Positions 19,988 to 21,959 of a stretch of 64,000 nucleotides of DNA are shown in pieces; position 1 is the stretch's first letter, and every line of letters begins with the position of its first letter. Source of the DNA: an uncultured Rubrobacteraceae bacterium. Its GTDB lineage: Bacteria; Actinomycetota; Rubrobacteria; Rubrobacterales; Rubrobacteraceae. The position numbers were made by a program, and so were the translations under genes. The DNA lies in the NCBI GenBank assembly GCA_902806085.1, contig CADCVH010000084.1, forward strand, positions 16,624-80,623, read 5' to 3'. The notes under the pieces were generated by a model. It did no database searches and was not told the DNA's origin. It saw only the letters and a list, made by a program, of their open reading frames with translations.

Positions 19988-20037
19988 CTGTTCCAGAATA
20001 GAACGGTTATTCAGGAAGCGTATTGGAGAGCGGTAGC

Positions 20038-21723
20038 ATGAGGTTGAGAGCGGGAATAGCGGGGATCGTCGGCCTGGTGGCGGCGCTCGGTATCACGGAG
20101 CTGGTTCACGGGCTCTACGACCTGGTGCCGTCGGTGCTCGGGTCCATAGCGCAGGTGGTCGTGGAGTGGACGCCGGGCGGCATCGTGACGCAGGGCATCG
20201 AGCTCTTAGGCAAGGCGGACATACCCGTCCTGATCGCATCGGTGGTCGTGGGCACGCTGGCTATCTCGGCCCTCCTCGGCATCCTGGCCGTGGATCGTCC
20301 TGATGTCGCCCTGCTCGGCGTTGCCCTCCTCACGGCGCTCGGTATCGCCGTCTCGTTCGTCGAGCCGTTTATCAACCCGGTCGCCACGGTGGTGACGGTG
20401 GTCGGCGCCCTCCTCGCCGGCACGGTCGTGGCCGAGATGATGCTCCGCGCCGCTGGGGCCAGGGACGTCAAGAGGCCGGCGCGCAAAGCCGCCCCCGCCG
20501 GGACGCCCGGAAGCCCGGGTTCTCCGGTGGTCCGGTGGCGCGAGGCTGGCACCGGCAGCATGTCGGTTGGCCGCGGGAGCTTCCTGGCGCTCGGCGGCGG
20601 CGCGGTCGTCGCGGGCCTGGCCGCGCTCGGCCTGGGGCGCCTGCTCTCCGGCGGCTCGCAGGCGTCCTCCGGCCCGAAGAGGCTCGACCTGTCGGACGGG
20701 TCCGCCGGCGGCAAGCCTTCCGGCGGTGGGGACCAGAAGGACGGGGGCGGCAAGGCGGCCGTGACGCACGAGACCCTGCCGAAGGTGCCGGCCGACGCCT
20801 CCATAGACGCGCCGGGGATGCCGAAGGTCCTCACCCCCGCGGGCAGCTTCTACCTCATAGACGCGGCGCTCACCTCCCCCAGGGTCAACGTCGACGACTG
20901 GAAGCTCTCCGTCAAGGGCGCCGTACAGAACCCGGTCGAGTTCTCCTACAAGGACCTGCAGGGGATGTCCACCCTGGAGTCCGACGTGACGCTCTCGTGC
21001 GTCTCCAACCCCGTCGGCGGCGGGCTGGTCTCCAACGGGCGCTGGACGGGGGTCCTGCTCTCGGACGTCCTGAAAGAGGCCGGCGTTAGCCGGGAGAACA
21101 TCACGCGGGCCAGCCAACAGCTCGTCGGGCGCAGCGTGGACGGCTGGACGGGAGGGTTCAGGACCGACATCGCCCTCGACGGCCGGGAGGCGCTGGTCGC
21201 CTTCGGCCTGAACGGCAGCGAGCTGCCCGTCAAGCACGGCTACCCCGTGAGGCTCGTGGTGCCGGGGCTCTACGGTTACGTCTCGGCGACGAAGTGGCTC
21301 TCTGAGATAGAGCTCACGAGCTGGGACTTCGACGCGTACTGGATCCAGCGCACCTGGACCAAGGAGGGCCCCGTAAAGACCCAGTCCCGCCTCGACACCG
21401 TCAAGGGCGGCCAGAACCTCCAGGCGGGCCGGGTCCCCGTCGGCGGCGTCGCCTGGGCCCCCCACCGCGGCATCGACAAGGTCGAGGTCTCCACCGATAA
21501 CGGCGAGACCTGGAACGAGGCCCGCCTCGCCAGCCAGCTCCACCCCGACACCTGGCGCCAGTACGTCTACCAGTGGGACGCCAAGCCCGGGTCCTACACC
21601 CTCCAGGTCCGGGCCACCGACGGCGAGGGCGTCCTCCAGACCGCCGAAGAACGCCCGCCCCACGGCGGCGGCGGCACCGACGGGGCCCAGGGCTACCACA
21701 CGGTCGACGTGACCGTGGCCTGA
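20038..21723 (+). CDS. Membrane-anchored molybdopterin-dependent oxidoreductase (sulfite oxidase family)
   Basis: About 561 aa from the ATG at 20038 (GGAGAG upstream; a TTG at 20023 is possible). Four hydrophobic segments lie in the first ~130 residues, then a basic linker and a further hydrophobic stretch (FLALGGGAVVAGLAALGLGRLL). A Gly/Lys-rich spacer leads to the Mo-cofactor domain, with the cysteine that ligates molybdenum in TLSCVSNPVGG, WTGVLLSDVL and HGYPVRLVVPGLYGY. The C-terminal Mo-co dimerisation domain includes VEVSTDNGETW. The catalytic part is probably extracytoplasmic. The family oxidises sulfite or reduces oxidised sulfur/methionine; the exact substrate is unknown. Confidence 0.88.
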   Translation: MRLRAGIAGIVGLVAALGITELVHGLYDLVPSVLGSIAQVVVEWTPGGIVTQGIELLGKADIPVLIASVVVGTLAISALLGILAVDRPDVALLGVALLTALGIAVSFVEPFINPVATVVTVVGALLAGTVVAEMMLRAAGARDVKRPARKAAPAGTPGSPGSPVVRWREAGTGSMSVGRGSFLALGGGAVVAGLAALGLGRLLSGGSQASSGPKRLDLSDGSAGGKPSGGGDQKDGGGKAAVTHETLPKVPADASIDAPGMPKVLTPAGSFYLIDAALTSPRVNVDDWKLSVKGAVQNPVEFSYKDLQGMSTLESDVTLSCVSNPVGGGLVSNGRWTGVLLSDVLKEAGVSRENITRASQQLVGRSVDGWTGGFRTDIALDGREALVAFGLNGSELPVKHGYPVRLVVPGLYGYVSATKWLSEIELTSWDFDAYWIQRTWTKEGPVKTQSRLDTVKGGQNLQAGRVPVGGVAWAPHRGIDKVEVSTDNGETWNEARLASQLHPDTWRQYVYQWDAKPGSYTLQVRATDGEGVLQTAEERPPHGGGGTDGAQGYHTVDVTVA

Positions 21724-21725
21724 CG

Positions 21726-21743
21726 GGGGGCAAAAGTGCCCCC
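21726..21743 (+). terminator. Hairpin directly after the molybdopterin gene
   Basis: GGGGGCA, AAAG, TGCCCCC: a perfect 7-bp GC stem starting two bases after the stop codon. There is no T-run, so it may stabilise the mRNA end or act with Rho. Confidence 0.5.
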
Positions 21744-21807
21744 GGACGCACTAAAGTGCAGGTTGAGGTTCATGGTGTGGCCGGGAGCTTTCGAACGAAG
21801 CGCCAGG

Positions 21808-21884
21808 TGTAACCAAAGTGTTTCCGGTGCGTAACAAGTCTGTAACGTATCGGCAAGAGCTTCGTAACGGGTTAAGGGTAAGAT
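21808..21884 (+). promoter_or_regulatory. 11-bp-phased YGTNNC repeat array with -10 element
   Basis: TGTAAC (21808), TGTTTC (21819), CGTAAC (21830), TGTAAC (21841) and CGTAAC (21863) are spaced at exact multiples of 11 bases; the unit at 21852 (GGCAAG) is degenerate. TAAGAT at 21879-21884 is a possible -10; the -35 position (AGAGCT) is poor, as expected for an activator-dependent promoter. The layout resembles Pho-box-like tandem sites for OmpR/PhoB-family regulators. Confidence 0.55.
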
Positions 21885-21890
21885 TCAGAT

Positions 21891-21959
21891 TAAACCGAGC
21901 CCCGGCCGATGGGACCATTCCCCCCTCCAGATCCCATCGGTCGGGACGGTTATTTTTTT
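21891..21959 (+). ncRNA. Candidate small RNA: long hairpin with C6 loop and terminator
   Basis: A 14-bp stem (21901-21914 with 21932-21945, one G-U) is extended by AACCG/CGGTT (21893-21897 with 21947-21951) and followed at once by A and seven Ts. The 17-base loop (21915-21931) contains six consecutive Cs followed by TCC. The -10 at 21879 would start a transcript of about 69 nt here. C-rich loops of this kind characterise the actinobacterial 6C RNA, which can pair with G-rich ribosome-binding sites. Only one such hairpin is visible, so it may alternatively be just a strong terminator. Confidence 0.5.

What the first reader, a model, noticed from the sequence alone, without database searches (positions are those of the whole stretch)
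21808..21959. Possible activator-controlled C6-loop small RNA
Half-sites YGTNNC repeat at exact 11-bp steps (21808, 21819, 21830, 21841, 21863), then a -10 element, then a roughly 69-nt segment that folds as one long hairpin whose loop holds six Cs followed by TCC, ending in A plus seven Ts. The array implies response-regulator activation and the C-rich loop could pair with GGAGG sites, as proposed for actinobacterial 6C RNA. A promoter that transcribes only a terminator-like hairpin is striking.
Basis: partly seen in the sequence, partly recalled or inferred. Interest (0 to 1): 0.7.

Follow-up and report, generated by a model that had tools for sequence, protein, structure and literature searches.

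The report
Small RNA controlling cell-wall hydrolase genes
A tiny hairpin RNA gene with its own regulator-controlled promoter is kept across nearly all Rubrobacter-family genomes, and the sequence in its loop matches, base for base, the ribosome-binding sites of genes for secreted cell-wall-cutting enzymes, so it probably switches off their translation.

Summary
Five YGTNNC half-sites stand at the stated positions, followed by a -10 box and one hairpin with a C6UCC loop ending in A plus seven Ts. The whole 150-bp block is conserved: a covariance model finds the hairpin in 35 of 40 Rubrobacteraceae genomes (all 13 genera) and in none of about 357 other genomes of the phylum. Eight stem pairs covary and the 11-bp phasing is fixed. 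The hairpin persists where neighbour genes are gone, so it is neither the tail of the molybdopterin mRNA nor a leader of the next gene. It does not match Rfam 6C. The loop complement AUCUGGAGGGGG occurs as the ribosome-binding site of secreted cell-wall hydrolase genes: in 40 genomes, 17 of 20 start-codon-positioned exact matches precede DPBB lytic-transglycosylase, NlpC/P60 or CAP proteins. In the window's own genome three NlpC/P60 genes and one DPBB gene carry 10-11 of the 12 bases. Some DPBB targets have the same GTAAC repeats in their promoters. Best reading: a new single-hairpin, C-rich-loop small RNA family, activated by an OmpR-type (MtrA/WalR-like) regulator, that blocks translation of a cell-wall hydrolase regulon. 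Transcription, repression and the regulator's identity are inferred, not shown.

The parts
21808..21868 (+). Array of six half-sites in 11-bp steps: TGTAAC 21808, TGTTTC 21819, CGTAAC 21830, TGTAAC 21841, GGCAAG 21852, CGTAAC 21863; probable binding sites for about three dimers of an OmpR-type response regulator
   Evidence: sequence; one search shows the same phase in 34 aligned promoters; exact GTAACN6GTAAC occurs about 10 times more often than the reversed pattern in 9 genus genomes
21879..21884 (+). -10 element TAAGAT, with the last half-site ending 10 bp upstream, over the -35/-24 region
   Evidence: T, A and final T invariant in 34/34
21891..21959 (+). Small RNA, about 68 nt; start inferred 7 nt after the -10, end at the T run
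   Evidence: Fold; covariation; model R1 found in 35/40 family genomes. Transcript not observed
21901..21945 (+). Main stem-loop, 14 bp: 21901-21914 with 21932-21945; outer stem 21893-21897 with 21947-21951
   Evidence: 8 pairs with changes on both sides, 0/500 shuffles reach that
21920..21932 (+). Seed: loop CCCCCCTCCAGAT, nearly invariant, complementary to the target ribosome-binding-site tag ATCTGGAGGGGG
   Evidence: CCCCCTCCA conserved in all rows; target matches
21952..21959 (+). A plus seven T, intrinsic-terminator tail of the same hairpin
   Evidence: T-rich tail in most relatives
21752..21772 (+). Second conserved block TAAAGTGCAGGTTGAGGTTCA upstream of the array, at variable distance; role unknown
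   Evidence: Visible in most relatives in the alignment
20023..21723 (+). Upstream neighbour, molybdopterin (sulfite-oxidase-like) oxidoreductase; not part of the RNA unit
   Evidence: syntenic in most loci but absent in L032
22027..22722 (+). Downstream neighbour, endonuclease V (nfi)-like gene; not part of the RNA unit
   Evidence: syntenic in nearly all loci but absent next to the RNA in L030 and L032

Best explanation
The segment is a small-RNA gene. An OmpR-family response regulator, most likely the one that governs cell-wall homeostasis (MtrA/WalR-like), binds the 11-bp GTAAC array and recruits RNA polymerase to the weak promoter. A roughly 68-nt RNA is made that is a single hairpin. The hairpin is at once the intrinsic terminator and the carrier of an exposed C-rich loop. 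The loop CCCCCUCCAGAU pairs over up to 12-13 nt with AUCUGGAGGGGG, an extended Shine-Dalgarno tag shared by mRNAs for secreted cell-wall hydrolases (DPBB/RlpA-like, NlpC/P60, CAP), and so blocks ribosome binding. The same kind of regulator sites stand in the promoters of some DPBB targets, so one signal probably sets both transcription and translation of this regulon. Shown by computation: conservation, structure, independence from neighbours, complementarity, and coherence of targets. Inferred: transcription, repression, and the regulator's identity.
For: DNA conservation of just the promoter plus hairpin; the hairpin by covariance model in 35/40 genomes and 13/13 genera, with no hit outside the family among 397 phylum genomes; covariation of the stem with a near-invariant loop; half-site phasing and -10 conserved in 34 promoters; retained when nfi is lost (L030) and when both neighbours are lost (L032). 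Loop complement: 17 of 20 exact 12-mers placed 3-9 nt before a start codon of an ORF of 100 aa or more precede DPBB, NlpC/P60 or CAP proteins (Pfam on representatives). Own genome: NlpC/P60 genes at C42:778, C123:20211 and C102:90240 with 11/12 tags, and a DPBB gene at C19 with 10/12. In a search by protein family, blind to the tag, all 8 members of the 120-aa DPBB subfamily in the genus carry 10-12 of 12 tag bases, 5 of them exactly. Predicted duplexes are -21 to -33 kcal/mol for the tagged set. GTAACN6GTAAC stands 47 nt upstream of the tag in four DPBB genes. WalR box TGTWAH-N5-TGTWAH (PMC9210968); MtrA consensus GTAACCN5GTAACC (PMC12323332); MtrA directly represses mepA, nlpC and rpf2 in C. 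glutamicum (PMC9599347); WalR controls lytE, cwlO and yocH in B. subtilis (PMC7299342).
Against: No transcript data. Exact-tag hits were selected by the search, and the total number of 12-mer hits apart from the RNA itself is about that of the reversed control; the signal lies in position and gene function. G-rich start regions are common here: the three strongest window background values were -24.5 to -27 kcal/mol, so energy alone does not discriminate. In G009 the loop reads CCAAAT while its targets keep ATCTGG, so no compensatory change was seen. Five family genomes lack a hit, and two of them (G001, 79% complete, and G003, 94% complete) have a tagged DPBB gene. The conserved TTGTTGTGCAAGC leader of the targets is not explained by the RNA. 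An array in front of one kinase-regulator pair was not conserved in relatives, so no regulator is singled out; a GlnR-type box also fits.
Confidence: 0.72

Rival explanations
1. The hairpin is a cis-acting leader or attenuator for the downstream endonuclease V gene, whose promoter is the array.
For: nfi lies on the same strand 38-200 nt downstream in nearly every locus.
Against: In L030 and L032 nfi is absent next to the RNA while promoter, stem and loop are kept. The hairpin ends in a T run like a terminator. The near-invariant loop has complementary sites elsewhere in the genome at hydrolase start codons.
Confidence: 0.08
2. The hairpin is only the terminator of the molybdopterin-gene mRNA.
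For: It follows that gene in most genomes.
Against: The gene has its own G/C hairpin right after its stop (21725-21743); the hairpin lies downstream of a conserved promoter; the RNA persists without that gene (L032); loop conservation is far beyond terminator needs.
Confidence: 0.03
3. A true member of the actinobacterial 6C RNA family.
For: C6 loop, actinobacterial host, short RNA ending in a terminator.
Against: RF01066 finds nothing in the genome, no Rfam match in relatives, one hairpin instead of the two stem-loops described for B11/6C (PMC8628891), different loop context.
Confidence: 0.04
4. Same small RNA and targets, but the regulator is GlnR-like (nitrogen) or PhoP-like rather than MtrA/WalR-like.
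For: GlnR boxes are gTnAc-n6-GaAAc or GTnAC-n6-GTnAC (PMC10704036); GTTCAC-like half-sites appear upstream of some DPBB targets; one own regulator has an atypical receiver (L246).
Against: The mRNA targets and the array-bearing DPBB promoters are cell-wall genes, the domain of MtrA and WalR.
Confidence: 0.25

Closest known systems
6C / B11 small RNA of actinobacteria (RF01066)
   Same: C-rich loop RNA in Actinomycetota, reported to bind mRNAs through the loop Cs without a chaperone (PMC8628891)
   Different: No model match; one hairpin instead of two stem-loops; targets here are cell-wall hydrolases, not panD or dnaB; clade-specific with its own array promoter
Staphylococcus aureus SprC (target atl) and RsaA (target ssaA among others) small RNAs
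   Same: Small RNAs that inhibit translation of autolysin or cell-wall-related mRNAs (PMC9266662)
   Different: No resemblance in sequence or structure was tested or is claimed; there individual hydrolase mRNAs, here a shared extended SD tag across several hydrolase families
MtrA and WalR cell-wall homeostasis regulons
   Same: 11-bp direct repeats like TGTWAH-N5-TGTWAH or GTAACCN5GTAACC; control of NlpC/P60 and other hydrolases
   Different: No small-RNA arm of these regulons was found in the papers searched; the Rubrobacter regulator was not identified
Xanthomonas sX13 and other anti-SD C-rich-loop small RNAs
   Same: C-rich loops used as seeds
   Different: A mechanistic analogue only, known here from an abstract (PMC3771888); homology not tested

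Membership tests
6C RNA (RF01066) | Scores above the Rfam covariance-model threshold | tested here: not met
   no 6C match in window, genome or ten relatives
6C RNA (RF01066) | Two stem-loops with C-rich loops | tested here: not met
   One hairpin in the window and relatives; only G020 has a tandem pair. Two stem-loops as described in PMC8628891
6C RNA (RF01066) | Run of about six Cs exposed in a loop | tested here: met
   C6 at 21920-21925, conserved
Anti-SD C-rich-loop small RNA (functional class) | Independent gene with own promoter and terminator | tested here: met
   Conserved promoter and terminator hairpin, kept without neighbours; transcript not observed
Anti-SD C-rich-loop small RNA (functional class) | Loop complementary to ribosome-binding sites of a coherent target set | tested here: met
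Anti-SD C-rich-loop small RNA (functional class) | Represses translation of targets | not testable with these tools
   Needs reporter or protein data
MtrA/WalR-type regulon | Direct repeats of the MtrA/WalR box at 11-bp spacing | tested here: met
   against PMC9210968 and PMC12323332; GlnR boxes fit too
MtrA/WalR-type regulon | An MtrA/WalR-type regulator binds the array | tested here: inconclusive
   Two own OmpR-type regulators compared with PDB sequences are nearest to RegX3 and MtrA; binding untested; autoregulatory array not conserved
GlnR regulon | GTnAC-n6-GTnAC box | tested here: met
   PMC10704036
GlnR regulon | Box in front of nitrogen-assimilation genes | not tested

The most novel reading that the evidence does not exclude
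A lineage-wide riboregulator of peptidoglycan hydrolysis: one cell-wall-stress regulator both controls hydrolase promoters and makes a minimal terminator-hairpin RNA whose loop reads a dedicated SD tag shared by at least three unrelated hydrolase families, forming a two-level lock on autolysis in an early-branching actinobacterial class.
Probability: 0.4. Interest if true: 0.75.

Novelty: new variant of a known kind. Interest (0 to 1): 0.62.

Why it matters
Small-RNA regulation in actinobacteria is thinly known, and no paper on a Rubrobacter small RNA turned up in the library searched. If true, this is a class-wide RNA with a predicted, testable target set and a very small design in which terminator and seed are the same hairpin. 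It adds a translational arm to the control of wall-cutting enzymes, whose mistiming lyses cells, in bacteria noted for radiation and heat tolerance.

Tried and rejected
6C membership. Weak Rfam scores (ar14, RsmW, mir-641) are far below gathering scores and are taken as chance. Hairpin as mRNA end or nfi leader: rejected by synteny losses. The kinase-regulator pair at G000:C73 looked like an autoregulated array owner, but the array is not found upstream in relatives. The two copies per genome in G005 and G006 are not evidence of duplication: both copies sit next to nfi, so the bins probably mix strains. Duplex energy alone does not separate targets from GC-rich background. Most GTAACN6GTAAC sites in genus genomes have no evident cell-wall gene downstream. 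One 11/12 hit before a secreted-looking protein of unknown family (L197) was not counted as a target. Laying the whole genome in the Python box was not available.

Full report
OBSERVATION. The sequence is as described. TGTAAC 21808, TGTTTC 21819, CGTAAC 21830, TGTAAC 21841 and CGTAAC 21863 lie in exact 11-bp steps; the sixth slot at 21852 reads GGCAAG. TAAGAT (21879-21884) follows, then a hairpin with arms 21901-21914 and 21932-21945, six Cs at 21920-21925, TCC, and A plus seven T at 21952-21959. The 68-nt RNA folds at -33.8 kcal/mol, z -4.6.

CONSERVATION. The window lies in a 4.4-Mb genome (G000) whose relatives are named Rubrobacter or Rubrobacteraceae. DNA search with the segment and its flanks found matches in 6 of 9 genus genomes and 30 of 40 family genomes; the block shared by all is about window 21808-21958, just the promoter and hairpin. 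A covariance model built from 31 members finds the hairpin in 35 of 40 family genomes, all 13 genera, and 21 of 22 good-quality genomes. In a 397-genome sample of the phylum no genome outside the family matches. Eight of 18 stem pairs show changes on both sides, with 28 such cells against 8.0 expected in shuffles. The loop CCCCCTCCA is conserved in every row. In 34 aligned promoters the half-sites keep their phase, and the -10 is T-A-n-n-n-T in 34/34.

INDEPENDENCE. Most loci have the order molybdopterin oxidoreductase - RNA - endonuclease V on one strand. In L030 (G018) nfi is missing beside the RNA, and in L032 (G025) both neighbours are missing, while the array, -10 and hairpin remain. The molybdopterin gene has its own hairpin at 21725-21743. 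The unit is therefore its own gene.

TARGETS. Among GTAACN6GTAAC sites in the genus two loci read, on the transcribed strand, array - GATCTGGAGGGGGACTC - ATG, which is a 13-nt perfect complement of the loop. The exact 12-mer ATCTGGAGGGGG was then searched in 40 genomes and the non-RNA matches fetched. Of 20 matches lying 3-9 nt before a start codon of an ORF of 100 aa or more, 17 precede DPBB lytic-transglycosylase-like, NlpC/P60 or CAP proteins with hydrophobic N-termini. The other three (L115, L138, L151) appear to lie inside unrelated coding sequence (Pfam on representatives). In the window's own genome the same search with one mismatch gives NlpC/P60 genes at C42:778, C123:20211 and C102:90240. 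A search by Pfam domain, which does not use the tag, found 8 members of the 120-aa DPBB subfamily in the genus: five have 12/12 tag bases and three 10/12, including the own-genome copy at C19. From general knowledge of the 16S 3' end, the ATCT before GGAGG and the extra Gs after it are not needed for ribosome pairing, but they are just what the RNA loop reads. Predicted duplexes are -21 to -33 kcal/mol, -19.9 for the own DPBB copy. Background start regions in this GC-rich DNA reach -27, so the argument rests on position and gene function, not on energy.

REGULATOR. YGTAAC-N5-YGTAAC fits the WalR box TGTWAH-N5-TGTWAH (PMC9210968), the MtrA consensus GTAACCN5GTAACC (PMC12323332) and GlnR boxes (PMC10704036). 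MtrA represses nlpC in C. glutamicum (PMC9599347), and WalR controls the hydrolases LytE, CwlO and YocH in B. subtilis (PMC7299342). The hydrolase target set, and the GTAAC repeats in DPBB promoters, favour an MtrA/WalR-like role. The own genome has about ten OmpR-type DNA-binding domains; the two regulators compared with solved structures are nearest to RegX3 and MtrA. None is singled out. In the RNA promoter the last half-site ends 10 bp before the -10, an activator-like place. In four DPBB promoters a half-site lies about 4 bp before the probable -10, which would suit repression; this is inference.

MODEL. Regulator on the array, then a hairpin RNA, then loop pairing with the tag, then blocked ribosome entry on hydrolase mRNAs. 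Steps shown computationally are the gene, its structure, its conservation and the complementarity. Steps inferred are transcription, repression and the signal. It works like C-rich-loop anti-SD small RNAs, such as 6C in outline and S. aureus SprC on atl (PMC9266662), but it is not a member of 6C.

LIMITS. Gaps remain. G001, G003, G016, G032 and G034 have no RNA hit, although G001 and G003 have tagged DPBB genes. The target leader TTGTTGTGCAAGC is unexplained, and so is a second conserved block at 21752-21772. No RNA data were available.

Noticed in passing
window 21752-21772 and relatives (alignment): A second conserved block, AGGTTNAGGTTNAGG-like, lies about 35-60 bp upstream of the array at variable distance; it is intergenic here and could be another regulator site.
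   Followed up: partly
L099, L100, L105, L106, L107, L111, L113 and others, just before the tag: Target mRNAs share a leader TTGTTGTGCAAGC ahead of the tag; it is not complementary to the small RNA and its role is unknown.
   Followed up: partly
L034 (G020:C27:4663-4795): Tandem duplication of the C-loop hairpin, giving two hairpins in a row after one promoter.
   Followed up: no
L144 and L149 (G027:C65, G028:C10): A perfect hairpin GAGATCTGGAGGGGGACGCCG/CGGCGTCCCCCTCCAGATCTC after a stop codon contains both the tag and its complement; possibly a terminator or a sponge.
   Followed up: no
L146 and L148 (G027:C105, G028:C8): Two tag-like copies close together, ATCTGGAGGGGGATGCCAGCATCTGGAGGGACTGC; unexplained.
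   Followed up: no
G000:C73:22586 (L257): A sensor kinase with an OmpR-type regulator beside a sigma-70-like gene has a perfect GTAAC-N6-GTAAC box in front in this genome only.
   Followed up: yes
L246 (G000:C102:1775): OmpR-type regulator with an atypical receiver (MRSPV in place of the usual KPF motif).
   Followed up: no
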